Shown: positions 3,255 through 42,063 of the stretch, piece by piece
Numbering within the stretch: the stretch's first letter is position 1
How the letters are laid out: every line of letters starts with the position of its first letter
The notes under the pieces: model-generated
The model's database searches: none
What the model was told of the DNA's origin: nothing
What the model saw: only the letters and a program-made list of their open reading frames with translations
Program-made: the position numbers and the translations under genes
Origin: a virus
Direction: 5' to 3' (one strand)
IMG/VR virus record: IMGVR_UViG_3300034198_030863
Location: 1 to 44,596 of that record
DNA length: 44,596 nucleotides

Positions 3255-4940
3255 TTAAGATTCAAATATCCATTTTTTCAAACCGCAATCCCAAACTCTA
3301 AAGGCACCAACATCCTCTAACATTATTTCACTTTCTGATTTTTCACTACTATATCCACTTTCAACAAGTCTAGATTTTCTAAAATTGGATTTATGTAACC
3401 TCTTCCCAGTTATAACCCACTTATAGTTTACTGGTGATTCCCCTATAAACTTAAAACCAATCTTTTCATATACCTCTCCTGTGAACAAGGACGTATCTGA
3501 GTAAGATATTATTGTTTTTGGGCTATAATTAGTACAAAAATATTTAAATAATTTAGATGATGATCCAATGACAGTTGTATTCATCTTGTTACAAAATCTG
3601 GATAATTCCCATCTATCTCTATTTTTAGTAAAACACATTAATGAAACTATCTTGTTATCTTGTAATAAAGCTATTTTTATGTTAGATTTACAGTTTCCTA
3701 AGATGTGATTTTCGTCTAAAAACTTTTTAGATTCCTTATTATCAACTATCGATATTTTACAATTTCTTGCAAAAATTCTAGAATTGTTTTTACCTATCCT
3801 ATTTAAAATAATTGATTTCACTATATCATTTTTGTATATCCAATCATCTCCCCAGATATGTATTAATTCAATTCCAATCTCTGCACATTTTTTACTTTTA
3901 TTTTTATGATAGTGCTTCCCCTTTTGTTCTTCTGAATGCCACCATAATCCATTAAATTCAAATCCTAATTTCAAATCTGGTAAATAAATATCAATTTCTT
4001 GTGGATATATAATCTTTTTATTGTTTAATATTTCCCCATTGTAGTTTTCCCTTATGAATTTTGATAATTCTTCTTGCTGACCCGATATATTCGAATTGTG
4101 TGGATTACAATTGGTACAAATAGTTGTTTTTTCTCTGTATCTTATATAAAAGTCTTCTCGATTAATGTTAAAATTATTTAGACATAAACCACAGAAGATT
4201 ATAATATTCCTTTTAAATTTATTAAATTCAATATCAATTAATTCATACTGATTGTAGGTTTTTAACCTACTTTCTATTTTATCTTTTAATTTTTTATTTT
4301 TTATTTCAATTAATTTTTTTATTGAAATATCGTGTATTTTTTTTAACATCCAAGGATGTTCTACCCCATATTTACTTAGAGATGTACTTTTAAAATTTTC
4401 TTTGAAACTACTTTTTTTAAAAGAATCAATTCTTTTTTCTAAAATTTCTTTGGACTTAGATGGATTATCTACTCCAAAATTATTTATTAGTGTGGATTTT
4501 GATTTATGTTGTGTTTGTTTAAGGCACATCGCCGAATTAGCTCCATATTTCTTTTGATTTGTTTTTATTATTTTATCTTTTATTGTTTTTGATTCTGCAG
4601 GTGTTTTGGTTCCCCATTTTTTCAAAGACTTCTCTTCCTTTATTTTTTTAATTTCCGGGTCCGAAGAAATACATTTGTTTGAACAATAATCTCTAAATCC
4701 TAATGTAGAGTTTATAAATTTTACAACATTATGACAATTATTATTTTTACAAGATGGAACCGAACATAAATTATTTATACACAAATAAACTTTTTCTTTG
4801 AATGATGTAGTGACATCTATTGAATTTTTATTACAGAATCCGATTATATAATCGTATACTTCTGTATAGTTTTTTTGTAGATAAGATTCTTTGTAGAACT
4901 TTCCTGAGGGATCTGGATTGTCAAATATATCTAAATTCAT
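3255..4940 (-). CDS. Free-standing homing endonuclease, Vsr-like (EDxHD) nuclease with YGV-repeat array
   Basis: 561 residues. N-terminal: a Cys-containing region (residues ~50-90). Middle: about four ~25-35-residue units with the signature (K)(Y/W/F)GV(D/E)(N/H)P followed by a K-rich helix (about 100-220), which probably bind DNA. Then comes a CxxC...CxxC segment (about 248-280). Next is a Vsr/PD-(D/E)XK-like core at ~315-368 with DIYLPDLKLGFEFNGLWWHS, a His pair and HIWGDDW. The C-terminal ~170 residues have a GNAT-like layout (ENHILG...VSLMCF...LYEKIGFKF). The core matches the EDxHD homing endonucleases related to very-short-patch-repair nucleases. It sits alone on the minus strand between tail genes, as a self-propagating gene would. 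Close paralogues are at 27065, 34181 and 40087, with a truncated one at 33293. Confidence 0.75.
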   Translation of the reverse strand: MNLDIFDNPDPSGKFYKESYLQKNYTEVYDYIIGFCNKNSIDVTTSFKEKVYLCINNLCSVPSCKNNNCHNVVKFINSTLGFRDYCSNKCISSDPEIKKIKEEKSLKKWGTKTPAESKTIKDKIIKTNQKKYGANSAMCLKQTQHKSKSTLINNFGVDNPSKSKEILEKRIDSFKKSSFKENFKSTSLSKYGVEHPWMLKKIHDISIKKLIEIKNKKLKDKIESRLKTYNQYELIDIEFNKFKRNIIIFCGLCLNNFNINREDFYIRYREKTTICTNCNPHNSNISGQQEELSKFIRENYNGEILNNKKIIYPQEIDIYLPDLKLGFEFNGLWWHSEEQKGKHYHKNKSKKCAEIGIELIHIWGDDWIYKNDIVKSIILNRIGKNNSRIFARNCKISIVDNKESKKFLDENHILGNCKSNIKIALLQDNKIVSLMCFTKNRDRWELSRFCNKMNTTVIGSSSKLFKYFCTNYSPKTIISYSDTSLFTGEVYEKIGFKFIGESPVNYKWVITGKRLHKSNFRKSRLVESGYSSEKSESEIMLEDVGAFRVWDCGLKKWIFES

Positions 4941-13842: not shown

Positions 13843-13871
13843 AAAACCCACCAAAAAATATGGTGGGTTTT
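13843..13871 (+). terminator. Hairpin terminator
   Basis: AAAACCCACCA (13843-13853), loop AAAAATA, TGGTGGGTTTT (13861-13871) and further Ts. It ends the 13075-13838 unit. The next start codon is only 16 nt further on. Confidence 0.85.
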
Positions 13872-13887
13872 TTAATATATAGAAAAT

Positions 13888-14757: not shown

Positions 14758-15371
14758 TCCTTATTCTTCAAATAGGTATCGATCATATTATTAAGACTAC
14801 GACTATCAAAAATTTGACCATCCTTTTTATCTTCAGTTTCCTCAGTTTGAGTATTTTTGACTTCGTTTGATTCCGCTATCTCATTCATACCAAAATCTCT
14901 TCTCATATCTTTATAGAATTTTTCTAAATCAGTTCTTTGATTTTGTGAGAATTTAATATTTTCACGAATTTGTGATATCGATTGATTTACTACTTCGTGC
15001 ATTCTCGCAGAACTATCACCATTATCTACCTGTCTTAACTGAGTTAAAAAGTTTTTACGAGTCATTTTTTGTAAGAATATTGTGTCAGCATAAACTTGCG
15101 CATCCTCTTTCATCTTATTCTGTATGTAAGGATGTTTTATTACACCCGGGTTATCACCCAGATATAAATCCACTAGAGACTCCAAAACTTCACCCGCTTG
15201 TGTTTTAGAATCCTCAATATCAGCATCATAATCATAGATTTGAATCTCACCTAAATCAGGTAAATCCTCTCTTTTAGCTAAATATTTAGATACATCCAAG
15301 TCTTTATTTTCTTCCTGAATTCTGTTAAACTCAGATTGTAAGTCGTTTATTTTCTCTTCCTTTTTATTCAT
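14754..15371 (-). CDS. 16: Terminase small subunit (T4 gp16-like)
   Basis: 205 residues from the ATG at 15371; a longer frame to 15407 would run into the promoter box. Features shared with T4 gp16: an N-terminal REDLPDLGEIQIYDYD (T4 has a DLPG...EEIKVYEP stretch), then a helical central region with AQVYADTIFLQKMTRKNF, SARMHEVVNQSISQIREN and LEKFYKDMRRDFG, and an acidic disordered tail. gp16 forms rings that regulate gp17 ATPase and select DNA for packaging. It is divergent from the large terminase gene with a shared promoter region, instead of preceding it on the same strand as in T4. Assigned by pattern and context. Confidence 0.7.
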   Translation of the reverse strand: MNKKEEKINDLQSEFNRIQEENKDLDVSKYLAKREDLPDLGEIQIYDYDADIEDSKTQAGEVLESLVDLYLGDNPGVIKHPYIQNKMKEDAQVYADTIFLQKMTRKNFLTQLRQVDNGDSSARMHEVVNQSISQIRENIKFSQNQRTDLEKFYKDMRRDFGMNEIAESNEVKNTQTEETEDKKDGQIFDSRSLNNMIDTYLKNKD

Positions 15372-15395
15372 ATCTGTAAGAAAATTGAAATTTCT

Positions 15396-15404
15396 TATAT
15401 ATAT
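15396..15404. promoter_or_regulatory. Candidate bidirectional promoter between the terminase genes
   Basis: TATATATAT lies 24 nt from the small terminase start (15371, minus) and 19 nt from the large terminase start (15424, plus). Being self-complementary, the box could serve both directions. Confidence 0.4.
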
Positions 15405-15423
15405 CAAAAAAATAAGGTTTTAT

Positions 15424-15948
15424 ATGGCAAAAGTTGCTCAAAAACAAGAAGAAGAAAGAAAAATAATTTTTGATACTCAATTAGTCGAAGAAGTGACTAA
15501 TAAGATTAACGATGGTGTGATTGTTAAAAGATTTCAAAATCCATGGTTTCAAAATGAAATCGGGGTTAGAAGATCAGGTATAACATTTAGATTAAGCGAA
15601 GATGAAATTCAAGAGTATATAAAATGTAAATTAGATATTAAATATTTTGCTGAAAAATATTGTAGAGTCAAAACCGAAGATGGATCTGTTAGTAATATAA
15701 AACTAAGAGACTACCAAAAAGGAATATTAGATTTATATACAAAAAACAGATTTTCAATACTATGCGCAAGCCGGCAAGTGGGTAAATGCTTTAATTTCAA
15801 CACTTTGTGTAAAATGGAAGATGGTAAATTAGAAAGAATTGGTAAAATATATTATGATTTATTGAGAAAAGAAAGAAAATTAACGATTCTCGAAAAAATT
15901 AAAATATTTTTGTACAATTCCCTTTTCTCATTAGGCAGGAAGCCATAA
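15424..15948 (+). CDS. 17: Large terminase N-terminal half fused to a split-intein N-fragment
   Basis: 174 residues from the ATG at 15424 (19 nt after the TATATATAT box). Residues 1-121 are the start of a T4 gp17-type packaging ATPase, ending with LCASRQVGK. That is the Walker A motif cut immediately before its Thr. Residue 122 is Cys and opens an intein N-fragment (CFNFNTLCKMEDGKLERIGK) that ends at a stop after 53 residues. The missing Thr and the rest of the ATPase appear in the gene at 17072, behind an intein C-fragment. Protein trans-splicing would join K121 to that Thr and give a full TerL of about 718 residues (T4 gp17 is 610). Without splicing the ATPase has no complete P-loop, so splicing should be essential. 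A free-standing endonuclease gene separates the halves. Confidence 0.9.
   Translation: MAKVAQKQEEERKIIFDTQLVEEVTNKINDGVIVKRFQNPWFQNEIGVRRSGITFRLSEDEIQEYIKCKLDIKYFAEKYCRVKTEDGSVSNIKLRDYQKGILDLYTKNRFSILCASRQVGKCFNFNTLCKMEDGKLERIGKIYYDLLRKERKLTILEKIKIFLYNSLFSLGRKP
15787..15945 (+). other. Split-intein N-fragment (IntN, 53 residues)
   Basis: It starts with the catalytic Cys1 at 15787 and contains intein block A (CFNFNTLCKMEDGKLERI). There is no block B: that motif is in the C-fragment, so the split is unusually early. The last ~25 residues (RKERKLTILEKIKIFLYNSL onward) form a basic, hydrophobic amphipathic helix that may help the fragment find its partner. Confidence 0.85.
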
Positions 15949-15976
15949 AATTTTAATATATAAAAATAAAATTTTT

Positions 15977-16993
15977 ATGGAAAAAATTCTAATTGAAGAT
16001 AATGATGATTTGGTGACTTGTAGAATTTGTGGTGGTCGACATAAAAGATTGTACGGTAAACATTTTACTGTTAATCACAAAATCACTTCTAAACAGTATA
16101 AAGAAATGTTTCCTGGTGCTCCAATTATGTGTAAAAATGATATGAAAAAAACTACTTTGAATTCAGGTAAGCACATGAAAGAGGATAGATACAAACAAAT
16201 GTTCCGTGAGAAGGTATTGGGTGAGAAAAATCCAAATCATAGAAGCAGAACAACAGAACAGGAAAGAAAGTCGAGAAGTCCATTTTCAAAACAGTTTATT
16301 GGATATTTTGATATTGAGAATAAAGAGGATCACATTAGTAAATTTGTTAAAGAAAGTTTAAAAGATAGAATAACTTCAACACAAAAAGAATATTACATCA
16401 AGAAGGGTTTTAGTGAGGAAGATGCAACTAAGCTATTATCCGATAGACAAAAAACATTCAGTCTCGAAAAGTGTATTGAAAAGTATGGTGAGGAACAAGG
16501 TCATAAAAGATGGTCAGAAAGACAAAGTAAATGGCAAAAAAATCTATTGGAAAATGGAAATTTAAAATGTGGATACTCGAGTATAAGTCAAGAATTATTT
16601 TATGAAATAATTACCTATTATAAAAATAAATCTGATTTAATGGAAGTTTACTTTGCTACCAAGAATAAAGAATATTTTATCAATACATCTGATTCTTTTT
16701 TTTCTTATGATTTCGTTGACATAAATAGGAAGAAGATTATAGAATATAATGGTGATAATTATCATGCAAATCCGAATAGATTTTCTGAGAATGATTATCC
16801 ACACCCGTTTAATAAAAAACTTGGTTTTTCCTCCAAAGAAATTTGGAACAGAGATAATCAAAAAAAATTGGTTGCTGAATCGAAGGGTTTTGAAATTTTG
16901 GTGATTTGGGATAGTGAATTTAAAAAAAATAAAAGTGAAATAATACACAAATGCTTACATTTCTTGGAAATAGAGACTATTGAAAATATTTGA
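15977..16993 (+). CDS. Free-standing homing endonuclease between the terminase halves (Vsr-like)
   Basis: 338 residues. N-terminal C2H2-type finger of the MucR/Ros kind (C15, C18, H29, H34; CRICGGRHKRLYGKHFTVNH). A GEKNPNHRS segment recalling NUMOD3-type DNA-binding modules. A helical segment (about 150-200) with EKYGEEQGHKRWSERQSKW. C-terminal nuclease-like core with KKIIEYNGDNYHANP (about 252) and GFEILVIWDSEF (about 306-317), which fits the Vsr/EDxHD fold. It lacks the YGV repeats and GNAT-like tail of the other endonucleases here, so it is a separate lineage. It starts 28 nt after the N-half stop with its own TTAATATATAAA box, and ends 78 nt before the C-half. This is the arrangement called fractured genes: a split intein with an endonuclease gene in the gap, so the gene can home into uninterrupted terminase alleles. 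Confidence 0.85.
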   Translation: MEKILIEDNDDLVTCRICGGRHKRLYGKHFTVNHKITSKQYKEMFPGAPIMCKNDMKKTTLNSGKHMKEDRYKQMFREKVLGEKNPNHRSRTTEQERKSRSPFSKQFIGYFDIENKEDHISKFVKESLKDRITSTQKEYYIKKGFSEEDATKLLSDRQKTFSLEKCIEKYGEEQGHKRWSERQSKWQKNLLENGNLKCGYSSISQELFYEIITYYKNKSDLMEVYFATKNKEYFINTSDSFFSYDFVDINRKKIIEYNGDNYHANPNRFSENDYPHPFNKKLGFSSKEIWNRDNQKKLVAESKGFEILVIWDSEFKKNKSEIIHKCLHFLEIETIENI

Positions 16994-17071
16994 AATTAAG
17001 CAATATTTAATGAAAATGAATACTTCCTTTATAAAAGAGATAAGTAATTTAAAAAAAATAATCTACTCACA

Positions 17072-17521
17072 GTGAAAGAATTTATAAGACGTATATTAAT
17101 AAAATTTATTTACTTTCTGATTGAAATCATAGAAAAAATTGAGTTTAGAGAGAGAGATTTGGACGAAGAAGATGTTTCGAAAAAAATTCTAAATACAATA
17201 TCCAATTTGAATTTTAAGGTCCTGTCTGATAGTGGATTTGTGGATTGTACTGATATTCATATTACGCAACCTTATAGAGTTTATTTTGTTAGTCTTGAGA
17301 ATGGTTATTTTTTAGAGGCAGCGGATAATCATATTTTATTTGACAAAGATTTTGAAGAAATTTTTGTCAAAGATTTGAAAATAGGCGATTTTGTTCATAC
17401 CGATTGTGGGTTGATAGCTGTTAAGACTGTGAAGAGGATGAATAGAAAACAATCCATGTTTGACCTGAGTATCGATCATCCGGAACACAGATTTTTCACA
17501 AATGGTATATTGAGTCACAAT
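17072..17521 (+). other. Split-intein C-fragment (IntC, 150 residues)
   Basis: It contains a block B-like segment (YFLEAADNHILF; the usual T of TxxH is Ala), then KIGDFVHTDCGLIAVK. It ends with block F/G DLSIDHPEHRFFTNGILSHN, with the terminal His-Asn directly before Thr+1. A leading amphipathic helix (FIRRILIKFIYFLIEIIEK) precedes an acidic stretch (FRERDLDEEDV). It may pair with the basic helix at the end of IntN. Confidence 0.85.
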
Positions 17522-19315
17522 ACAATCAATGCTGCCATTACTATGTTACACTTCATTACATTCAATAATGATAAGAATATTATGATTGTAGCGAATATCA
17601 GGGGTACTACAATTGAAATTATTGATAAAATAAAAAATATTTATGTTCAATTACCATTTTTTCTAAAATCCGGTATTAAAAATTGGAATCAACAATCTAT
17701 CATTTTTGAAAATGGATGTCGAATAAAATCTTCAGCAAGAAGTAAAACTCCAGCAATCGGTTTTACCATTGACTTTCTTTACCTTGATGAATTTGCACAT
17801 ATTCCATCTAATATTATTGAGCCTTATTATACTGCTGCCTTTCCAACCGTATCTGCAATTGAAAATTCAAAGATTATTATCACTTCAACACCAAATGGAA
17901 TGAATTTATTCTATAAGTTATTGACTAATGCTGAGAGACCTGAGGGTGATCCTTTGAAGAATAACTATAAGGCAATGAGGGTTTATTGGTACCAAGTCCC
18001 GGGTAGATTTGTTACATATTTTAGATTAAATAATCATAGACTTTATGAAAACGGATTGACAAAAGAAGAAGTTTTTAATCAAGTTATTGAAGAATTTTCT
18101 GAAATTACCAAGGTTGAAATGAAATTCATACCAGATTTAACAAAGGATGTTATTTACATTTATAATAATGAAAATTGCTCGGATATAGATGTTAAAAAAT
18201 TTATTGTCCGAAAAGAAGATAGAGAAATTTCTATACATTCTATAGCTGAAGTTACGACTTGGAAAGAAGAAGCTATTAAAGATATTGGTGGTGAGGATGC
18301 TTTCAATCAAGAATATGGATTAAGATTTATAAACGCTACAAGATCTTTACTTAATGAGAATATTATAGAACATCTATTAAATAATAAAAAACCTTTTATT
18401 TATAGGGACATTGAGGAGTTAGATAAAAAGTTAAAATTCTCTTATGGTGATTTGAAATGGATTGATGACGAGGATGTCTTTTTACCTGAACAAAGAAAAT
18501 CTGTAAAGGGTACAATCTCTATCGATATTTCTGAAGGGTTAGGTCAAGATTATTCGATAATTAATATTTTCAAAATTAGGGAAAAATCAGATGATGTTAT
18601 TGAATCACAGAAATTTAAGTATACACATTTAGCAGACTTTTTCTGCTTAGAACAAATTGGAATTTATAGATGTAATTACGCTTCTGTTAAACAATTAGCA
18701 GAGATTTTTTATCTTTTAGCTTTTGAATACTTTGATTATGAGAATTTCAAAGTTGTTTTAGAATTAAATAATTATGGTAATGAATTCTTAGCACATTTAC
18801 CTCACGTCTTTGAAGGAAAAAATAATTATGGTTCTAGTATATTTTTTAGGTATAAACATCGAGCAGATTCACCTGAAGAAAAAGTTGGATTAAAAGTTGG
18901 TGAGAATAAAAATATGTTAGTAAAGGATTATCAAGAAGCAATGGAAAAGAAAAATTTCATTGTTACCAATGAAGATAATATTCGAGAAATTACGACTTTT
19001 GTTAAACATATCACTTCTGCTGGTAATATTAGATATGCTGCAGATATAGGGCACGATGATACAGTTATGTCTTTAGTAAATGCTGCTTCAGTATTTTCAA
19101 AGTTTGATTTTAGAGAAATGGTAGACGATTACGCAAACTCTATTGTAAGTAAAGAGAAGTTAACCTACTGGAATCAAATTTTAAAACAAGTTGAATACAC
19201 TGAGATCACTGATTATCAGAGTATATTGGATGTGAATAGAAAAAGAAGAATGGCAGAACAACTTAGAAATATGAATACTAAGATTCTTGGAAACAATAAT
19301 TATGGTAGGTGGTAG
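17072..19315 (+). CDS. 17: Split-intein C-fragment fused to large terminase C-terminal part
   Basis: 747 residues from a GTG at 17072: an in-frame stop lies at 17045, no ATG lies between, and no Met occurs in the first ~120 codons. Residues 1-150 are the intein C-fragment. Thr151 (17522) begins the extein and restores the Walker A as GK-T. The terminase continues with Walker B FLYLDEFAH (about 235-243), the coupling motif IIITSTPNG, and the RNase H-like nuclease with three acidic motifs: SIDISEGLGQDYS (about 483), VVLELNNYGNEF (about 563) and GHDDTVMSLV (about 660). These match D401, E458 and D542 of T4 gp17. The product translocates DNA into the prohead and cuts concatemers. GTG start and A-rich leader suggest modest expression. 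All catalytic residues needed after splicing are present. Confidence 0.9.
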   Translation: MKEFIRRILIKFIYFLIEIIEKIEFRERDLDEEDVSKKILNTISNLNFKVLSDSGFVDCTDIHITQPYRVYFVSLENGYFLEAADNHILFDKDFEEIFVKDLKIGDFVHTDCGLIAVKTVKRMNRKQSMFDLSIDHPEHRFFTNGILSHNTINAAITMLHFITFNNDKNIMIVANIRGTTIEIIDKIKNIYVQLPFFLKSGIKNWNQQSIIFENGCRIKSSARSKTPAIGFTIDFLYLDEFAHIPSNIIEPYYTAAFPTVSAIENSKIIITSTPNGMNLFYKLLTNAERPEGDPLKNNYKAMRVYWYQVPGRFVTYFRLNNHRLYENGLTKEEVFNQVIEEFSEITKVEMKFIPDLTKDVIYIYNNENCSDIDVKKFIVRKEDREISIHSIAEVTTWKEEAIKDIGGEDAFNQEYGLRFINATRSLLNENIIEHLLNNKKPFIYRDIEELDKKLKFSYGDLKWIDDEDVFLPEQRKSVKGTISIDISEGLGQDYSIINIFKIREKSDDVIESQKFKYTHLADFFCLEQIGIYRCNYASVKQLAEIFYLLAFEYFDYENFKVVLELNNYGNEFLAHLPHVFEGKNNYGSSIFFRYKHRADSPEEKVGLKVGENKNMLVKDYQEAMEKKNFIVTNEDNIREITTFVKHITSAGNIRYAADIGHDDTVMSLVNAASVFSKFDFREMVDDYANSIVSKEKLTYWNQILKQVEYTEITDYQSILDVNRKRRMAEQLRNMNTKILGNNNYGRW

Positions 19316-19338
19316 CACTTCAACAACTTTATGGAAGT

Positions 19339-19396
19339 ATAAAGGCATGAATCTACCTTCTTTTTGTTGACACAATGTGCTGATTCATGCCTTTAT
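19339..19396. repeat. 15-bp perfect inverted repeat between convergent genes
   Basis: ATAAAGGCATGAATC (19339-19353) and GATTCATGCCTTTAT (19382-19396) enclose a 28-nt loop that itself can form TTGT-TGAC-ACAA. It lies between the ends of terminase (+) and clpS (-). A bidirectional terminator or processing hairpin is possible, but there is no strong T-run. Confidence 0.6.
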
Positions 19397-19429
19397 TTGA
19401 AAAGTATTCTATTATTACTCAAGATTTTT

Positions 19430-19711
19430 TTAAGCTAATTCCATAGTCACTGTCAATCCAGCACTTTTAAGTAAATTATACATTTTTTTGATTGTTTCTT
19501 GATCACCTCTTTTCACATCACATTTTCCAGTATAATGCACTAGAATAGCACATTGATTTGCTTGTTCTACTTCGTGTTTGCAATATTTAACAAGACATTC
19601 AATGACAAACTCAAAGGTATTAAAGTCATCGTTGTGAAGCATTAAAATGTAGGGTTTAGATAAAATTTCGTCTAATTTTTCTTCTGTTTTTGATCTTGTA
19701 ATTGTACTCAT
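19430..19711 (-). CDS. clpS: ClpS, ATP-dependent Clp protease adaptor
   Basis: 93 residues, close to cellular ClpS length. It has the core YILMLHNDDFNTFEFVIECL with the N-degron-binding N-D-D, then a helix with HEVEQANQCAILVHYTGKC, whose second conserved His lines the pocket. It ends with a beta-alpha-beta unit (LLKSAGLTVTMELA). The FNTFEFVIE and QAEQC...VHYKGKC-like patterns are those of Bacteroidota ClpS, which suggests capture from the host phylum. ClpS hands proteins bearing bulky hydrophobic N-terminal residues to ClpAP and can block other substrates. A phage copy may redirect host proteolysis; that role is inference. Upstream, a TGTATATA box at about 19731 is a candidate promoter. Confidence 0.92.
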   Translation of the reverse strand: MSTITRSKTEEKLDEILSKPYILMLHNDDFNTFEFVIECLVKYCKHEVEQANQCAILVHYTGKCDVKRGDQETIKKMYNLLKSAGLTVTMELA

Positions 19712-20823: not shown

Positions 20824-21489
20824 ATGAAACACATTAGAAATTTCGAAGGTTATAAAAACAAAAGAAGAAGAGACGATATTATTAAAGAATCTGTTCTACA
20901 AGTTAATGATATTTACAAAGTTAGAACTATGATTGATATTCCTCAATCACTTATTAACTCTTATGTTAAAAAAGTAAAAGAAACATCTGGAAAAAATTTA
21001 CGTCAATATTTTGGTGATGTGGATATCGCTGAAGAAATTGTAAAATTCATTGCTATGACTCAGCTTGATTCAGAAAAGATACCCGCTAACGCACTATTAG
21101 GCGGACAATCTCAGGCACAATCACAATCTCAAGTACAAGTACAAACATCACAAACTCAGGGTCAAGCACAAACACAGACACAGGAAGAGGATGATTTCGA
21201 AGATGTACAATCTCAAGGACAAGGTCAAGGACAGGGTCAAGGACAAGGTCAAGGACAGGGTCAAGGACAAGGTCAAGGACAAGGTCAAGGACAGGGTCAA
21301 GGACAAGGTCAAGGACAAGGTCAAGGACAGGGTCAAGGACAGGGTCAAGGACAGGGTCAAGGACAGGGTCAAGGACAGGGTCAAGGACAGGGTCAAGGAC
21401 AGGGTCAAGGACAAGGTCAAGGACAGGGTCAAGGACAAGGTCAAGGACAAGCACAATCACAGGAACTTCCAGAGGAAGAAGAAGATTAG
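20824..21489 (+). CDS. Low-complexity Gln-Gly repeat protein
   Basis: 221 residues. The N-terminal ~95 residues are folded-looking (MKHIRNFEGYKNKRRRDD, then DIPQSLINSYVKKVKET). They are followed by a Gln-rich Q-S/Q-A/Q-V segment, an acidic spacer EEDDFEDV, thirty-nine consecutive Gln-Gly dipeptides (21214-21447) and an acidic end (ELPEEEED). The repeat is certainly disordered. The start resembles the short F-rich N-termini seen on other possible head proteins of this phage. Preceded by TATATAGTATATAAAA and followed by a terminator, so a single-gene unit. Function unknown; an internal head or condensate-forming protein is speculative. Confidence 0.7.
   Translation: MKHIRNFEGYKNKRRRDDIIKESVLQVNDIYKVRTMIDIPQSLINSYVKKVKETSGKNLRQYFGDVDIAEEIVKFIAMTQLDSEKIPANALLGGQSQAQSQSQVQVQTSQTQGQAQTQTQEEDDFEDVQSQGQGQGQGQGQGQGQGQGQGQGQGQGQGQGQGQGQGQGQGQGQGQGQGQGQGQGQGQGQGQGQGQGQGQGQGQGQGQGQAQSQELPEEEED
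21214..21447 (+). repeat. Gln-Gly dipeptide repeat, 12-bp minisatellite
   Basis: 234 nt made of CAAGGTCAAGGA/CAGGGTCAAGGA units encode (QG)39. Codons alternate GGT and GGA for Gly, and CAA and CAG vary, so the period is 12 bp and not 6. The array looks maintained by slippage or unequal recombination. Confidence 0.95.
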
Positions 21490-22570: not shown

Positions 22571-22616
22571 TTTAGGAAAATAAATAATTTAGTCTATATA
22601 TTAAATTACTATCCTA

Positions 22617-26025: not shown

Positions 26026-26665
26026 TTATAAATCCAATTTTTCTAAATTTCTTTCCCTAATTAGAAGTTTAAACTCAGAAATTAAATTATTTTTACTTGA
26101 TGCTGCACCTATAGTTCTGAAATTCTCACCATCAAAAGTAACAAAGTATTTGATAGCTCTGAAGAAACCGAATTTAATAATATTTCTCTCGAATGGAATA
26201 ACACAATCATCTATATTAATTTCTTCAATTGAAATAATTCTATCAGTATCTATATGAACTACTTTGTCTTTATATTGTAATAATAATCTATCATATAGAA
26301 TTGAACAATATTCATAAATCAGAGCTACTACTGAATGATGTGATTTATTTGATGCAAATCTTCCATATAATGAATTTATCTGAGTTCTTCTAATATCATA
26401 CTCAGACTTATTAGTTTCTTTCAATCGCTCTCTATCCTCAAGAAAATATTTAATTATACTATATTCATCTTCTACATCGATTAGACCTTCTTCATGTAAT
26501 AAACAAATAATTCTTGGATATAATAAAGAAAAATCTAATTGATGTAAATTTTCTAATAATTTGTCTTGATGCTCAGAATTTATCCATTTATATCCACCAA
26601 TGTAATAATGACCTTCTTTCAGAAAGTTCTGATAATCTTTCTCTTATTTCATTAGTTATTCTCAT
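26026..26665 (-). CDS. Miniature family-B DNA polymerase palm protein, apparent +1 frameshift near start
   Basis: The frame from about 26643 down to 26026 reads through without a stop and encodes the heart of a family-B polymerase: motif A LDFSLLYPRIICLLHEEG, motif B RRTQINSLYGRFASNK, motif C KVVHIDTDRII and a Lys-Tyr-type motif RAIKYFVTFDGE. Both catalytic Asp positions (motif A D, motif C DxD) are kept. The motif forms are nearest protein-primed (phi29-like) polymerases. There is no exonuclease, and the A-to-B spacing is short (~60 residues), so fingers and TPR inserts are lacking. This frame has no ATG. The only upstream ATG (26665, MRITNEIRERLSEL) is in another frame, overlaps the HAD gene end by 14 nt, and would join after one base is skipped in CTTTC at 26622-26626. 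The joined product is about 212 residues. It could be a split polymerase part, a domesticated palm, or a decaying gene. Confidence 0.65.
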
Positions 26666-27064: not shown

Positions 27065-28852
27065 TTATCTTTTGAATACCCATTTTTCTTGACCACAAGA
27101 ATAAACTCTGTAATAACCAATCTCTTGTAAAATTTGCGATTCTGATTTATTTTTATCATATCCCATTTTAATCAATCTTTTCTTATTAAAATTGAATCTA
27201 TGTTTTCTTATACCATCAACTATCCAAAAATAATTAGGTTTAGAAAGACTCACTTTTTTGAAACCCAATTTCTGATATAAGTTACCACTGAATAATGATA
27301 TGTCAGAATAAGAAATTATCTCATTCACTTCATAGTTTTTAAGAAAGTGTGAAAATAATTTAGAGGCAGCACCAATTACATTATAATTTATCCTATTGCA
27401 AAATCTAATTAGCTCATATTCCCTTTTAGAGTTTGTAAACCTCCAACCAAATGTCATTAGACTAACTAATTCATTATTAAAGTATAACCCAAGTTTAAGT
27501 TGAGAAGGACTTGAGCCTTGTATATGATTACTATTTAGAAATTGTGAAGAATCATTAGAATCTACTAACTTTATCTCACATTTCCTAGCATAAATTTTAT
27601 TATCTAGGAGATTTAATTTGTTTAAGATTATTGATTTAGTTATATCCCTTTTATATTTCCAATCGTCTTCCCAAATATGCAGAAGATGTATATCTTTTTC
27701 TTTACATTTAAATGTCTTATCTCTATGATAATATTTATCTAAATAAATTTCTGAGTGCCAATAAACACCATTCATTTCAATAGCCAATTTATAATCAGGT
27801 AAATAAATGTCTAATTCTTTACCTTCTAAAATACTCCTATCTTTTTTATTGTAGCTTAAATTCAATGAATTTAAAAAATCTTGTATCTCTAATTCCATAT
27901 TTGAGTGTCCAAGGTTAATGTCTAAACATTTTGTACATATACAAATTTTCAAATTGTGTCTTGAATATAGTAAATCTCTATTAATTTTGAAATTACGGCT
28001 ACACTCTTTATGGAATATTTCAAAATTTGAGTTCCGATAATCAATAATCTCAAAACCTTCACCTATCAAGTTTTCATATCTTAACTTGGTAAGATTCTCT
28101 CTATTATTTCTTAGTTTATTCTTAAATTCTTCTGTTTTTGAATAGTGTTCTACACCCCAATTTTCGATAGAAGTTTCCTTGACTTTCTCTCTATATTCTA
28201 ATGACTGAGAGTAATTATCTACACCCCATCTACTTTGAGATATTTCTTTGATTTTAGATTTGAATTCTGTTGTTTGTGAATATCTTTTCACACCATAGTT
28301 ATCCAAAAAAGACTTAGTAGTCTTTTCTTTTATGTCTATATTTTGTTGTGGATACTCTACACCAAACTTTTCTAAATTTGATTTTTTAATTTTTTCTTTG
28401 TGTGTTGTAGATTTGAAAGTATTATCTACACCGAAGTTTTTTAGACATGTATTCTTATATTTCTCTTTGAATTCTTCAGTTTTTGAAAAATGATCGACAC
28501 CATAGGTATCCAACAGACTATTTTTAAGTTTATCTTTTATTTCTTCTGATTGCATTGGGTTTTCAACACCCCATTTTTCTAAACAGGTTTCCTTACGTTT
28601 GATATTATTACATTTGTTACAAAAGTATTTTTCTTTTAAACCCTCTGTATATTCATAGTAGAATCTGAATTCATTGCTCTTTTCCACACCGCAATTATCA
28701 CATATTGATGTGATAATTGTGGTAGATCCGGGCATTAAATCTTCAATTTTTACCTGTATTGGTTTTTTGAATTGTATATCATATCCCTTTCTTTTGAAAT
28801 GTTCAAAATTAGTCCTATGACCCCTAATTTCTATATAGATTTCTTTTATCAT
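27065..28852 (-). CDS. Free-standing homing endonuclease, Vsr-like core with seven YGV repeats and GNAT-like tail
   Basis: 595 residues. N-terminal CxxC pairs (CDNCG, CNKC). About seven consecutive ~24-residue repeats (residues ~85-250) follow, of the type (L)(E)KWGVENPMQSEEIKDK. A degenerate zinc-binding region lies at ~280-315. The Vsr/EDxHD core (about 344-398) has ELDIYLPDYKLAIEMNGVYW, then HRDKTFKCKEKDIHLLHIWE and DDW. The C-terminal ~180 residues have NHIQGSSPSQLKLGLYFNNE and LYQKLGFKKV, a GNAT-like pattern shared by all full copies. It stands alone between a HAD gene and gp55, with TCTATATATTAG at its own 5' end. Longer repeat array than the copy at 3255. Confidence 0.75.
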   Translation of the reverse strand: MIKEIYIEIRGHRTNFEHFKRKGYDIQFKKPIQVKIEDLMPGSTTIITSICDNCGVEKSNEFRFYYEYTEGLKEKYFCNKCNNIKRKETCLEKWGVENPMQSEEIKDKLKNSLLDTYGVDHFSKTEEFKEKYKNTCLKNFGVDNTFKSTTHKEKIKKSNLEKFGVEYPQQNIDIKEKTTKSFLDNYGVKRYSQTTEFKSKIKEISQSRWGVDNYSQSLEYREKVKETSIENWGVEHYSKTEEFKNKLRNNRENLTKLRYENLIGEGFEIIDYRNSNFEIFHKECSRNFKINRDLLYSRHNLKICICTKCLDINLGHSNMELEIQDFLNSLNLSYNKKDRSILEGKELDIYLPDYKLAIEMNGVYWHSEIYLDKYYHRDKTFKCKEKDIHLLHIWEDDWKYKRDITKSIILNKLNLLDNKIYARKCEIKLVDSNDSSQFLNSNHIQGSSPSQLKLGLYFNNELVSLMTFGWRFTNSKREYELIRFCNRINYNVIGAASKLFSHFLKNYEVNEIISYSDISLFSGNLYQKLGFKKVSLSKPNYFWIVDGIRKHRFNFNKKRLIKMGYDKNKSESQILQEIGYYRVYSCGQEKWVFKR

Positions 28853-33278: not shown

Positions 33279-33311
33279 AAAAAAGGGAAAAATTAATTTT
33301 TTTCCCTTTTT
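33279..33311. terminator. Bidirectional terminator after portal
   Basis: AAAAAGGGAAAAATT / AATTTTTTTCCCTTTTT. It overlaps the last codons of the truncated endonuclease gene on the other strand. Confidence 0.8.
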
Positions 33312-33703
33312 CTTTTTTCTATTATTTCCTTTGATTTTGAAGGGTTATCAACACCCCACTTTTCAATCATGGTTTCTTTTATTTTATTTTTTATTTTTTT
33401 ACTTTGTATTGGATATTCAACTCCATGATTTTCTACCAAAGTTTCTTTTCTTTTCTTCTCGGAACATTTTCTACAAAAGTAATCACCCCAACGATTTCCA
33501 TATTTGACATAGTTTTTGAAAATAACTTCTTTAACTACACCACATTTATCACATTTACAATTTATTTTATAATGACTACCCGAAGTTAATAATTCTATTG
33601 GTATAACTAAATTTTCACCAAGAGTTACATCGTAACCAAGTTCTTCATAATATCCGAAATTTGATTCGGTTATTTTTACCAATATTTCTCTCGTTAGTAT
33701 CAT
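33293..33703 (-). CDS. Truncated homing-endonuclease-family protein (DNA-binding part only)
   Basis: 136 residues. N-terminal region with CDKCG and CRKC, then two YGV-type repeats (ENHGVEYPIQSKKIKNK, EKWGVDNPSKSKEIIEK), ending KREKN. It matches the first quarter of the full-length paralogues (for example 27065), but the Vsr core and GNAT-like tail are missing. Its stop lies in the portal terminator stem, as if a deletion fused the remnant to the terminator. Its ATG overlaps the stop of the 33700 gene (ATGA). Either a remnant or a small DNA-binding protein. Confidence 0.7.
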   Translation of the reverse strand: MILTREILVKITESNFGYYEELGYDVTLGENLVIPIELLTSGSHYKINCKCDKCGVVKEVIFKNYVKYGNRWGDYFCRKCSEKKRKETLVENHGVEYPIQSKKIKNKIKETMIEKWGVDNPSKSKEIIEKRKREKN

Positions 33704-34180: not shown

Positions 34181-35809
34181 TTATAAATTTAATTCCCACT
34201 TAATTTTACCACAGTCCCAAATTTTTGGTATCTCTAATTTCGATTCTGATATTCCAGTTACAGATTTCTTAAAATTAGATTTGTGTACTCTCCTTTCACC
34301 TACTACATATTTATAATCCGGTTCACTTTCACTCACTTTCTCAAAATTTAACTTCTGATATAAATTTCCTCTACTCCAATCTTTGTCTGCATAACTAATT
34401 ATTCGTTTTGGTTTCAAATTATCTAAAAAAAATTTCAAAAGTTTAGAAGCCCCACCAATTATATTATGTTCCAATTTATTACAAAATCTATTCAGATTCC
34501 ACTCGTACTGAGACATTTTCTTACGACCTTCCCATTTATCAAATGTCATCAAAGAAACTAATTCTTCATTGTAAAATAAACCTAATTTGATATTTGAATT
34601 AACATGACCTTGAATGTGATTATTATTCAAAAATTCTCTAACTAATGTAATATCCTTTATTTCAACAACCTTACACTTTCTAGCGAATATTTTTTTGTTG
34701 ATTCCAATCAAACTTTTTATTTGACTTTTGATAATTTCACCCTTTTGTTTCCAATCATCCTCCCAAATATGAATCAATCTTATTCCATTTTTTTCAAAAA
34801 AATTTGATTTATTAAGATGAAAACTTTTATCTTTATATCTATCTGAATGCCAATAAATACCATTCATTTCGAACCCTAATTTTAATTCTGGTAAATAAAT
34901 GTCTATTTCTGCCCTATCTATTTTAAAATTTTGAATTATTTCACCATTGTAAATTGATTTGATATAATTAAAGAGTTTGATTTCTTGTCCAGATTGATTC
35001 TTACCTATTGGGTTACAAACGGTACATATTTCAGTGTTAGTTTCTCTTCTTTTATAGAAGAGAACTCTATTAATCGAATATTTTGAATTGCAACTATTGC
35101 AAAAAATATTATAAAATTCATTTTCTATTGATATCAATTTATCAATTTTTTCAAAGGATTTTTTTGATAGTGTATTTTTTAATGAGGTTTTTATTTTATC
35201 AATTACAAATTCATTTTTTGACGGTGCTTCACTCCCCCATTTTTCTATATTTTTTTTGATACTTTTTTCTTTGAAATAAACTGATTGAAATAAATAATCA
35301 CATCCATATTTTACTCTATTGGAGTTAATTTGATTTTTTTTGAAATCATCTGACCTGAATATATAATCTACACCATTATTTCTTATTGATGTTTTAACCT
35401 TTTTAATCTCAATTGAATTTAATTGTGACACATTTTCAACACCCCATTTTATTTTATTAGTTTCAATTCTTTTTCTATTTACTTCTTCTTTATCTAATTT
35501 AGAAAAACTCTCTTTTATTTTTTCTTTTACTTTTTCTGACTGTGAAATAAATTCAACGCCAAACTTTTCTAAATTAGTCTTTTTAGTTTTTTCTTTGGTA
35601 GATTCTAACTGAAAAACATTTTCGACTCCATACTTCTCTAAGTTATTCTTTTTTAGTTTACATTTTCTACATAAATATTCACCATCTATATATCCATAAG
35701 AAGTATAGAGTTTGAACTCTAAGCTCTTTTCTATCTCACAAATATCACACTTCACCTCAATTTCTTTTTTACTCCACTTTCCTAAACCACCTATATCACT
35801 TAGAATCAT
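34181..35809 (-). CDS. Free-standing homing endonuclease, Vsr-like core with YGV repeats
   Basis: 542 residues. CxxC pairs near the start (CDICE, CRKC). About six repeats follow (LEKYGVENVFQLESTKEK, LEKFGVEFISQSEKVKEK, and so on, residues ~45-205), then a second Cys region (CNSC, CTVC). The core at ~298-352 has EIDIYLPELKLGFEMNGIYW, a His, and HIWEDDW. The C-terminal GNAT-like part has NHIQGHVNSNIKLGLFYNEE and LYQKLNFEKV. It lies between portal and protease genes on the opposite strand and leads a three-gene minus-strand unit (this, the 33700 gene and the truncated paralogue). Confidence 0.75.
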   Translation of the reverse strand: MILSDIGGLGKWSKKEIEVKCDICEIEKSLEFKLYTSYGYIDGEYLCRKCKLKKNNLEKYGVENVFQLESTKEKTKKTNLEKFGVEFISQSEKVKEKIKESFSKLDKEEVNRKRIETNKIKWGVENVSQLNSIEIKKVKTSIRNNGVDYIFRSDDFKKNQINSNRVKYGCDYLFQSVYFKEKSIKKNIEKWGSEAPSKNEFVIDKIKTSLKNTLSKKSFEKIDKLISIENEFYNIFCNSCNSKYSINRVLFYKRRETNTEICTVCNPIGKNQSGQEIKLFNYIKSIYNGEIIQNFKIDRAEIDIYLPELKLGFEMNGIYWHSDRYKDKSFHLNKSNFFEKNGIRLIHIWEDDWKQKGEIIKSQIKSLIGINKKIFARKCKVVEIKDITLVREFLNNNHIQGHVNSNIKLGLFYNEELVSLMTFDKWEGRKKMSQYEWNLNRFCNKLEHNIIGGASKLLKFFLDNLKPKRIISYADKDWSRGNLYQKLNFEKVSESEPDYKYVVGERRVHKSNFKKSVTGISESKLEIPKIWDCGKIKWELNL

Positions 35810-40086: not shown

Positions 40087-42063
40087 ATGAATAAGTTAGA
40101 AATAATTGACAAAATCTTACAAGATGAAGGAAACCGATTAAGAGAATCATATTTCATCAAAAATAGTCCCCATATTCTGGATGAAATATTGCAATATTGC
40201 ACTAATATTACTCACATACCTTTCAAACAGAAAATTTGGCACTGGGTGAATGATAATCCAAATGAATACCTTTGTAAATGTGGTAACACAACAACTTTCA
40301 ATAGAAACTGGAAAGATGGTTATAGAAAATATTGTTCGGCTAAATGCTCAGCAACTGACACTTCTACAAAAGAAAAACGTAAAAACACAAATGTTCAAAA
40401 ATATGGGGTTGATAATGTTGCTAAAGCAGATAGCATTAAAAATAAACAAATGGAAACTAATTTAGATAGATATGGTACTAAATCATCTGCTCAAAACGAA
40501 GAAGTTAAAAAGAAATATAAAAATACTATTAAGAAGAAATATGGAACTGAATATTATTTTCAATCAGATGATTTTAAATTGAAATCAATGGATTCCAATT
40601 TAGAAAAGTATGGAACTCATTTTACCAAAACAGAAGAATATAAAGAAAAAACTAAGAAAACTAATTTAGAAAAATTTAATAATGAGTGGTACACACAAAC
40701 AGAAGAGTATAAAGAGAGATATAAAAAAACTTCTTTAGAAAAATGGGGTGTTGAAAGCTTTCTACAATCAGAAGAACTTAGAAACATTTTAAAAAATAAT
40801 AAGCCCGAAATAATAGAGAAAATTAAAAAAACATCACTACATAAATGGGGTGTTGAATGGTATAACAAAACCGATGATTTTAGGAATAAAATAAAGGAAA
40901 AGTGGGAAAGTGGTGTCTATTCGAATATAAAATCAAAATCGATAATTACAAATAATCTTTTATATGGATTTGATTGGTTTACTCAAACAGAAGAATGGAG
41001 GAATTATTTAAAGTCTGATGAATTTAGGAATAAAATAAAATACTCACTTATTGAAAAATCTAGCGAACATTATAAAAATATAGGATATGTTCTATTGGAT
41101 ATTGAAAATGACTTTGTTACATTAAAGGGTAACTGTGGACACACATTCAAAATAAAAATCTACAATGCGAGTAGAAGGAACATCAATGGATTAATTGTAT
41201 GTACAGAATGTAATCCAATTAATATAAGCCAATCTGGTTCTGAAATAAACCTCGTGAGTTGGCTAAATCAACATATAGAATTAGAAACAAAAAACAGAAG
41301 TCAAATTTCACCACTTGAGCTAGATATATACATTTCTTCTAAAAGTGTTGCAATTGAATATAATGGACTATATTGGCATTCAGAACTTTACAAAAACAAG
41401 AAATATCATTTAGAAAAACTTCTAAGATGTAATGAAGTCGGTATAGACTTAATTCAAGTTTGGGAAGATGATTGGTTAGAAAGACAAGAAATAGTTAAGT
41501 CTATAATCCTCTCTAGACTTGGATTGATTCAAAATAAAATTGGTGCGAGAAAGTGCCATATCGAATTTATCCAGGATAGAAATTTAGTGAATAATTTTTT
41601 TGATAACAATCATATACAAGGAAAGACTAATTATAAGTTTGCTGTTGGGTTGTTTTATAATGAAGAATTAGTTTCTTGTATGTTATTCAATAAACCAAAA
41701 AAGGATTTTGAATTAGTAAGATTCGCTAATAAAATAAATTTAACTGTGAGTGGGGCAGCATCAAGACTATTTAAATATTTCAACGATAATCAAGATGTTT
41801 CTGAGATAGTTTCATTTGCCGATAGGGCAACTTTTAATGGTAATTTATATAGGGAATTAGGTTTTGAATTTGTCCATAGGACGGAACCAAATTTTTGGTG
41901 GATAGTAGACGGCAGAAGAAAACATAGATTTACTTATAATAAACAGAAATTAATAAAGGCTGGTGGTGATCCGAATAAAACTGAAGTCCAAATAATGAAT
42001 GAAATGGGATATCAAAGAATATTTGGATGTGGACAAGATAAATATGTTTATAAAAAACACTAA
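40087..42063 (+). CDS. Free-standing homing endonuclease, longest copy, with about eight YGV repeats
   Basis: 658 residues. N-terminal ~95 residues: CKCG...CSAKC zinc-binding region preceded by a helical DEILQYCTNITHIPFKQKIW stretch, like the copy at 3255. About eight repeats follow (VQKYGVDNVAKADSIKNK, LEKWGVESFLQSEELRNI, and so on, residues ~100-320). A CGH...C-x-x-C region comes next. The core at ~410-463 has ELDIYISSKSVAIEYNGLYW, a His and QVWEDDW. The GNAT-like tail has NHIQGKTNYKFAVGLFYNEE and LYRELGFEFV. It is inserted between the capsid gene and the beta protein on the coding strand, with its own TATAAATA box. Confidence 0.75.
   Translation: MNKLEIIDKILQDEGNRLRESYFIKNSPHILDEILQYCTNITHIPFKQKIWHWVNDNPNEYLCKCGNTTTFNRNWKDGYRKYCSAKCSATDTSTKEKRKNTNVQKYGVDNVAKADSIKNKQMETNLDRYGTKSSAQNEEVKKKYKNTIKKKYGTEYYFQSDDFKLKSMDSNLEKYGTHFTKTEEYKEKTKKTNLEKFNNEWYTQTEEYKERYKKTSLEKWGVESFLQSEELRNILKNNKPEIIEKIKKTSLHKWGVEWYNKTDDFRNKIKEKWESGVYSNIKSKSIITNNLLYGFDWFTQTEEWRNYLKSDEFRNKIKYSLIEKSSEHYKNIGYVLLDIENDFVTLKGNCGHTFKIKIYNASRRNINGLIVCTECNPINISQSGSEINLVSWLNQHIELETKNRSQISPLELDIYISSKSVAIEYNGLYWHSELYKNKKYHLEKLLRCNEVGIDLIQVWEDDWLERQEIVKSIILSRLGLIQNKIGARKCHIEFIQDRNLVNNFFDNNHIQGKTNYKFAVGLFYNEELVSCMLFNKPKKDFELVRFANKINLTVSGAASRLFKYFNDNQDVSEIVSFADRATFNGNLYRELGFEFVHRTEPNFWWIVDGRRKHRFTYNKQKLIKAGGDPNKTEVQIMNEMGYQRIFGCGQDKYVYKKH

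What the first reader, a model, noticed from the sequence alone, without database searches (positions are those of the whole stretch)
15424..19315. Fractured large terminase: split intein cuts the Walker A motif, endonuclease gene sits in the gap
Seen: the terminase frame ends ...SRQVGK, then a Cys-starting intein block A and a stop. 1.1 kb further on a second frame carries intein blocks ending SHN and continues with T-INAAITML. The insertion is exactly between the K and T of the P-loop, the site least able to tolerate change. Between the halves is a separate Vsr-like nuclease gene. Known: this layout matches the fractured genes (split intein plus free-standing endonuclease) described from metagenomic phage sequences, and a split intein in TerL (AceL-TerL) is known from an Ace Lake metagenome. 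Inference: the three parts form a trans-splicing and homing unit controlling DNA packaging.
Basis: partly seen in the sequence, partly recalled or inferred. Interest (0 to 1): 0.92.

Follow-up and report, generated by a model that had tools for sequence, protein, structure and literature searches.

The report
Packaging motor gene broken by split intein
In this phage the gene for the DNA-packaging motor is cut in two inside its ATP-binding site by a two-part self-splicing protein element with a DNA-cutting gene in the gap; the same element recurs at exactly this spot in dozens of other phages and moves between them, so it is a well-supported new case of a known kind of genetic parasite rather than a new principle.

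Summary
TerL is encoded in two halves, broken between Lys and Thr of the Walker A motif (SRQVGK|T). The N-half ends in a 53-aa intein N-part and the C-half begins with a 150-aa intein C-part. A 338-aa Vsr/EDxHD-like endonuclease gene lies between.
A viral-contig scan with the C-part found 79 loci, every one at this TerL site. Thirty of 40 close TerL relatives have a clean empty site.
Mobility is supported. Near-identical phages carry different alleles (exteins 96-100% identical in DNA, inteins about 61% different in protein). Some diverged TerLs share young cassettes. IntN and IntC covary beyond host relatedness. Most nucleases are under purifying selection.
RNA splicing and cis explanations fail for the family: in a 735-kb phage the halves lie 12.4 kb apart, and in Salicola phage SCTP-2 173 kb apart on opposite strands.
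Relatives show HEG loss, a different antisense HEG, or a contiguous intein nested among split ones; the contiguous model folds as HINT and puts the break between two helices.
This is a new member of the known 'fractured gene' kind, at a TerL site distinct from AceL-TerL. 'Controlling DNA packaging' is unsupported. Splicing and cleavage are untested.

The parts
15424..15786 (+). TerL N-extein (121 aa) ending SRQVGK, the first part of Walker A
   Evidence: phrog_5989 TerL E=1.1e-18; uninterrupted in 30 close relatives
15787..15948 (+). Intein N-part (IntN), 53 aa starting with Cys1, plus stop; block A followed by a helical tail
   Evidence: 7 sequences aligned, C1 invariant; 46 IntN listed; model helix 30-41 in the contiguous relative
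15396..15403 (+). Promoter-like TATATANA element about 28 nt before the TerL N-half start
   Evidence: 18 of 36 window genes have it within 50 nt, 2.8 expected
15952..15968 (+). Promoter-like element TTTAATATATAAAAATA just before the endonuclease, carried inside the cassette
   Evidence: 9 sites in window vs 1.67 expected; 18 of 34 distinct HEGs have TATATANA within 60 nt, 2.9 expected
15977..16993 (+). Free-standing endonuclease, 338 aa: N-terminal zinc-finger-like part plus C-terminal Vsr/EDxHD-like nuclease (D245, E256, G259, H263)
   Evidence: weak ROS/MucR; profile hits 3r3p I-Bth0305I and Vsr; D245, E256, G259 invariant and H263 nearly invariant in 33 HEGs
17072..17521 (+). Intein C-part (IntC), 150 aa, GTG start, helical head, block B ADNH, block F, terminal SHN
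   Evidence: PF14890 E=2e-7; alignment; profile to VidaL 1e-11, gp41-1, CatC
17522..19315 (+). TerL C-extein (597 aa) starting with the Walker A Thr; ATPase remainder and nuclease domain
   Evidence: Terminase_6N 4.8e-14
17777..17791 (+). Walker B motif LYLDE, intact (not interrupted here)
   Evidence: sequence

Best explanation
A site-specific homing cassette in the terminase large subunit. The two TerL halves are translated separately. IntN and IntC associate, helped (inferred) by the two helices that flank the break, form a HINT fold, and splice: Cys1 attack, Thr+1 transesterification, Asn cyclisation. Lys121 is joined to Thr, giving a 718-aa TerL with a restored Walker A motif. The endonuclease in the gap, transcribed from its own phage-type promoter-like element (inferred), cuts uninterrupted terL genes of co-infecting phages at the GK|T codons (inferred). 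Recombination then copies the whole cassette. Over time the HEG is lost, replaced by another HEG, or the intein becomes contiguous, and the cycle repeats. Shown: sequences, insertion site, empty sites, allele swaps, differential divergence, purifying selection, separated halves in relatives. Not shown: splicing, DNA cleavage.
For: Catalytic residues Cys1, block B His, block F Asp, penultimate His and terminal Asn are present here; in the 41-sequence C-part alignment the block B His (H129), block F Asp (D173) and terminal Asn are invariant and the penultimate His nearly so (variants in L141 and L156). Model of a contiguous relative: HINT fold (pLDDT 86; PDB matches are inteins, incl. VidaL, 1.0 A over 102 columns), break between helices 30-41 and 46-64. 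All 79 scanned IntC loci are followed by the Walker A Thr of TerL. 30 empty vs 10 occupied sites in 40 close relatives. Allele swap L022/L028 vs L026/L038: exteins 96-100% DNA identity, IntN 51-75%, IntC plus HEG 3' half mostly 40-69%. Young cassettes in old TerLs: L112/L114 extein dS 1.7-2.8 vs intein 0.27-0.38; L095/L103, L093/L094, L109/L118 similar in part. IntN-IntC partial Mantel r=0.49, best null 0.19, p<=2e-4. HEG dN/dS 0.05-0.20 in all but one scored pair. Halves 12.4 kb apart in LR756501 and 173 kb apart in SCTP-2. No other TerL in the 44.6- or 75.6-kb contigs. No Rfam intron.
Against: No experiment. HEG assignment is weak by sequence and fold (3r3p E=0.025 by profile; Foldseek E=0.14, prob 0.96, below several mitoribosomal hits). 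The HEG target is inferred, not shown. L109/L118 share IntN and HEG but not IntC, and L134/L136 have IntN dN/dS 1.5 and HEG 0.47, so parts can move or relax separately. The helix-pairing idea rests on one model; amphipathicity is only modestly above shuffles (mean z 0.8 and 1.4).
Confidence: 0.9

Rival explanations
1. The gap is removed at RNA level by a self-splicing intron carrying the HEG, as in the large terminase of phage ICP1.
For: ICP1 terL is spliced at RNA level (PMC10448857); Campylobacter phage IBB_35 terL was described with an intein and an intron (PMC3322345).
Against: No Rfam match at E<=1 in 15000-19600. Both intein parts are conserved proteins under purifying selection. In LR756501 and SCTP-2 the halves are far apart, in SCTP-2 on opposite strands.
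Confidence: 0.03
2. The locus is a decayed, non-functional TerL (pseudogene), or the halves work together without splicing like the genes-in-pieces NrdA.
For: Halves are separate ORFs; NrdA split by a homing endonuclease insertion keeps its function (reference cited in PMC3322345).
Against: Intein catalytic residues and TerL motifs are intact; dN/dS is well below 1 in exteins and nearly all intein comparisons; no other TerL on a 75.6-kb contig. Cutting Walker A between K and T should destroy ATP binding unless rejoined (established P-loop chemistry).
Confidence: 0.04
3. Trans-splicing is kept because it benefits the phage, for example as an assembly or timing checkpoint on packaging.
For: Split inteins persist without HEG in about nine lineages and with dispersed halves, with low dN/dS; the two halves may have different promoters.
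Against: Purifying selection is expected for any element in an essential gene. No regulatory correlation was found; many sister phages do without it.
Confidence: 0.08
4. Assembly or frameshift artefact.
For: Metagenomic contigs; the window record is linear and incomplete.
Against: Identical insert on another contig and the same layout in dozens of samples and in other records.
Confidence: 0.01

Closest known systems
Fractured genes (Dassa et al. 2009; from recall and citing papers such as PMC6892783)
   Same: Conserved phage gene broken by a split intein with a free-standing endonuclease gene in the gap; Vsr-related endonuclease; control element brought in with the HEG (recalled as reported there).
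   Different: Target is a packaging motor, not (as recalled) a DNA synthesis or repair enzyme; very early split with helical extensions on both sides. The 2009 paper itself was not available.
AceL-TerL / GOS-TerL / Cat inteins
   Same: Naturally split TerL inteins (Cat is their engineered consensus) with a short N-part (25-37 aa) and long C-part (104-115 aa); CatC is a sequence relative of this IntC.
   Different: Those have +1 Cys (PMC11766414); here +1 is the Walker A Thr. The best-ranked phage relative of CatC (Vibrio phage VP-1) ends SHN|CSFLGSVGTL, a different TerL position, and VP-1 carries a GK|T intein as well. N-part here is 53 aa.
TerL inteins of Ackermannviridae, e.g. Klebsiella phage Magnus (159 aa, annotated)
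   Same: Same GK|T insertion site, related intein (37% identity in C-part).
   Different: Contiguous, no HEG, no fracture.
Agrobacterium phage Atu_ph07 and Delftia phage PhiW-14 TerL
   Same: Split intein at the same GK|T site, two TerL reading frames.
   Different: No HEG; Ser1 in Atu_ph07; the Atu_ph07 paper does not mention inteins. PhiW-14 could be a frameshift.
Escherichia T4-like phage HY03 TerL
   Same: TerL broken in two with an annotated endonuclease ORF between.
   Different: Break is in Walker B, DE|C...SHN|CAFI, not Walker A.
I-Bth0305I (EDxHD homing endonuclease)
   Same: Best solved-structure profile hit of the HEG (3r3p); Vsr-like core.
   Different: Group I intron HEG; similarity weak.
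VidaL split intein
   Same: Best profile and a top fold match (6vgv).
   Different: No link to TerL was tested here.

Membership tests
Split intein, class 1 | Block A Cys1, block B His, block F, terminal His-Asn and nucleophilic +1 residue, on two polypeptides | tested here: met
   C1, ADNH, MFDLSIDH, SHN, T+1; conserved across the family
Split intein, class 1 | HINT fold | tested here: met
   Contiguous relative L155 modelled at pLDDT 86; top PDB fold matches are inteins; the window's own two parts were not modelled together
Split intein, class 1 | Trans-splicing activity | not testable with these tools
   needs co-expression; separated halves in relatives imply it
Fractured gene | Essential gene interrupted at a conserved motif by the split intein; uninterrupted homologues exist | tested here: met
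Fractured gene | Free-standing endonuclease gene in the gap | tested here: met
   15977-16993; 34 distinct + strand HEGs at the same place
Fractured gene | Element is mobile | tested here: met
   empty sites, allele swap, differential dS; inferred from sequences, not observed
EDxHD / Vsr-like homing endonuclease | Vsr-like catalytic core with conserved D, E/H residues | tested here: inconclusive
   D245, E256, G259 invariant, H263 nearly so; 3r3p E=0.025, Vsr 0.7-0.9; Foldseek prob 0.96, E=0.14
EDxHD / Vsr-like homing endonuclease | Cuts the uninterrupted target site | not testable with these tools
   needs in vitro cleavage
AceL-TerL intein allele | Same insertion site in TerL with +1 Cys | tested here: not met
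   +1 is Thr of Walker A
Group I/II intron | Intron RNA core | tested here: not met
   no Rfam match up to E=1

The most novel reading that the evidence does not exclude
The helices on either side of the break are a built-in docking module that lets the TerL halves find each other even when encoded far apart, and split TerL has become a stable, HEG-independent state (possibly an assembly checkpoint for packaging) in some large phages.
Probability: 0.15. Interest if true: 0.75.

Novelty: new member of a known kind. Interest (0 to 1): 0.52.

Why it matters
It gives a densely sampled natural series for one intein site: empty, contiguous, split with HEG, split after HEG loss, split with a different HEG, and halves dispersed along the genome. 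That makes the homing cycle and the origin of split inteins directly testable, in a gene whose failure (no packaging) is easy to score. It also shows that an annotated 'incomplete' terminase can be a complete one in pieces, which matters because TerL is the usual phylogenetic marker for tailed phages. The short, helix-tagged split intein may be useful for protein ligation.

Tried and rejected
Rfam scan for intron cores: none. Joint MAFFT alignment of N- and C-halves misaligned the N-parts, so the model used the contiguous inteins plus C-parts only. Dassa et al. 2009 is not in the paper library; statements about it rest on recall and citing papers. The genome-contig scan gave one distant intein in an unrelated gene of a Clostridia MAG. 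T4 late-promoter consensus TATAAATA upstream of HEGs was only weakly enriched (23 vs 15 expected); TATATANA was clear. Amphipathicity of the helical tails: modest. A few calls failed on reading frames, on a script error or on report format.

Full report
Observation. The terminase frame runs from 15424 to ...SRQVGK (15786), continues into a 53-aa Cys-starting intein part, and stops at 15948. A 338-aa ORF follows at 15977-16993. At 17072 a GTG starts a 150-aa intein part ending SHN, followed directly by T-INAAITML and the rest of TerL to 19315. The insert is 1735 nt and changes frame, so no single frame joins the halves. Family searches agree: TerL on both sides, Intein_splicing on the C-part.

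The site. In 40 close viral-contig relatives, 30 have TerL uninterrupted at this exact codon boundary and 10 have an insert. Flanks join with no base lost or gained. A scan with an alignment of intein C-parts returned 79 loci, all continuing into the Walker A Thr of TerL. The family is therefore specific to one site. The scan used the helical head as seed, so C-parts lacking it would be missed.

Architectures. The commonest is IntN, a + strand HEG of 315-394 aa, IntC, as in the window (34 distinct HEGs). Four distinct cassettes (L093, L094, L100, L130) carry instead a ~575-aa HEG on the minus strand. That HEG has the GVDNP-type repeats (matched by Pfam DUF7487 in three of the window's other free-standing HEG-like genes). 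About nine are split with no HEG; L102 has nearly the same inteins as L100 but no HEG, and L143 keeps a HEG-like tail fused to IntN. Two are contiguous (L147, L155). In a 735-kb phage (LR756501) the N-half (623865-624410) and the C-half (609226-611493) are 12.4 kb apart with many genes between, some on the other strand. In Salicola phage SCTP-2 they are 173 kb apart on opposite strands. L159 has a phage gene between the halves.

Mobility. L022/L028 and L026/L038 are nearly identical phages in terL (96-100%) but carry different inteins; only the 5' half of the HEG is shared. Conversely, L112 and L114 have extein dS of 1.7-2.8 but intein dS of 0.27-0.38, and several other pairs show the same in part. 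Only five of 1081 pairs meet a strict cut-off for a young intein in an old extein, so such cases are clear but not common. Across 47 loci IntN and IntC distances correlate after removing extein distance (partial r=0.49; 5000 permutations never exceeded 0.19), as expected if the halves must match. L109/L118 is an exception: IntN and HEG are shared, IntC is not. HEGs have dN/dS of 0.05-0.20 in all scored pairs except L134/L136 (0.47), so most are maintained as proteins.

Structure. AlphaFold2 of the contiguous intein of L155 gave pLDDT 86 (lower, near 60, over the first 30 residues). Two helices, 30-41 and 46-64, lie where the gene is broken in its relatives, and fold matches are inteins. L155 and split, HEG-bearing L137 are 95-98% identical on either side, but 59 nt in L155 replace 1194 nt in L137. 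On the IntC tree both contiguous members are nested among split ones (quick tree, unrooted). Re-fusion after splitting is the simplest reading, not proven. That the helices dock the halves together is inference.

Endonuclease. D245, E256, G259 and H263 are (nearly) invariant in 33 HEGs. Profile search against the PDB finds I-Bth0305I first (E=0.025), then Vsr and, for the N-terminus, Ros. Foldseek ranks I-Bth0305I and Vsr at probability 0.96 but with weak E-values, behind some mitoribosomal proteins. 'Vsr/EDxHD-like' is fair; membership is not proven.

Expression. TATATANA occurs within 50 nt upstream of 18 of 36 window genes (2.8 expected), including the TerL N-half and the HEG but not the C-half; 18 of 34 distinct HEGs have it (2.9 expected). 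The cassette thus seems to bring its own promoter-like element, which may also serve the C-half. This is a sequence pattern only.

What is known. Split inteins with a HEG in the gap were described as fractured genes (Dassa et al. 2009, recalled), and a fractured PolB in phage MIJ3 (PMC6892783). Split TerL inteins AceL-TerL and GOS-TerL have +1 Cys (PMC11766414), so another site. The best-ranked phage relative of the Cat intein, in Vibrio phage VP-1, ends SHN|CSFLGS, and VP-1 also has a GK|T intein. HY03, a T4-like coliphage, has TerL fractured in Walker B. The GK|T site carries contiguous inteins in Ackermannviridae (Magnus, annotated) and a split one in Atu_ph07, whose paper does not mention it. 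I found no open-access paper describing the GK|T fractured terminase family, but the library lacks most subscription journals.

Verdict. A confirmed, well-supported fractured terminase; new member of a known kind, with an unusually complete set of natural intermediates. No support for control of packaging. All functional steps remain to be tested.

Noticed in passing
LR756501.1 609226-611493 and 623865-624410; MF360958.1 256428 (+) and 429398-429718 (-): TerL halves encoded 12.4 kb (735-kb phage) and 173 kb (Salicola SCTP-2, opposite strands) apart, each half ending or starting in its intein part.
   Followed up: partly
LR756501.1 about 699905-701038 (L172, L179): A second TerL-like ORF (394 aa) with a degenerate Walker A (SRQMGIT), no intein: probably an inactive paralogue.
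   Followed up: no
L107, L120, L121, L159 C-extein ORFs: C-halves of about 960-990 aa; in L120 a second intein is visible in the nuclease domain (GNDD|CVPGDTL...), so some TerLs carry at least two inteins.
   Followed up: no
L168 (Campylobacter phage CP21): TerL interrupted three times, including a P-loop intein (QPRQ|C..SHN|SS), a GIY-YIG-like ORF and a Walker B intein (DE|C..VSN|CAYL).
   Followed up: no
window, e.g. 13871-13887, 15952-15968, 22589-22605: Phage-wide promoter-like motif TTTAATATATAAAnAAA / TATATANA upstream of about half the genes.
   Followed up: partly
window 3255-4940, 27065-28852, 34181-35809, 40087-42063, 33293-33703: Several more free-standing HEG-like genes with GVDNP repeats (DUF7487 in the three tested) and Vsr-like parts; the same class as the minus-strand HEG that replaces the usual one in L093, L094, L100 and L130.
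   Followed up: partly
window 19430-19711 (-): ClpS-like protease adaptor (PF02617, E=8e-18) in a phage, right after terL.
   Followed up: no
window 26026-26424 (-): 132-aa ORF with family-B DNA-polymerase-like motifs (NSLYGRF, HIDTD) but no Pfam or PHROG match; possibly a piece of a broken polymerase.
   Followed up: no
window 20824-21489 (+): Protein with a long (GQ)n repeat.
   Followed up: no
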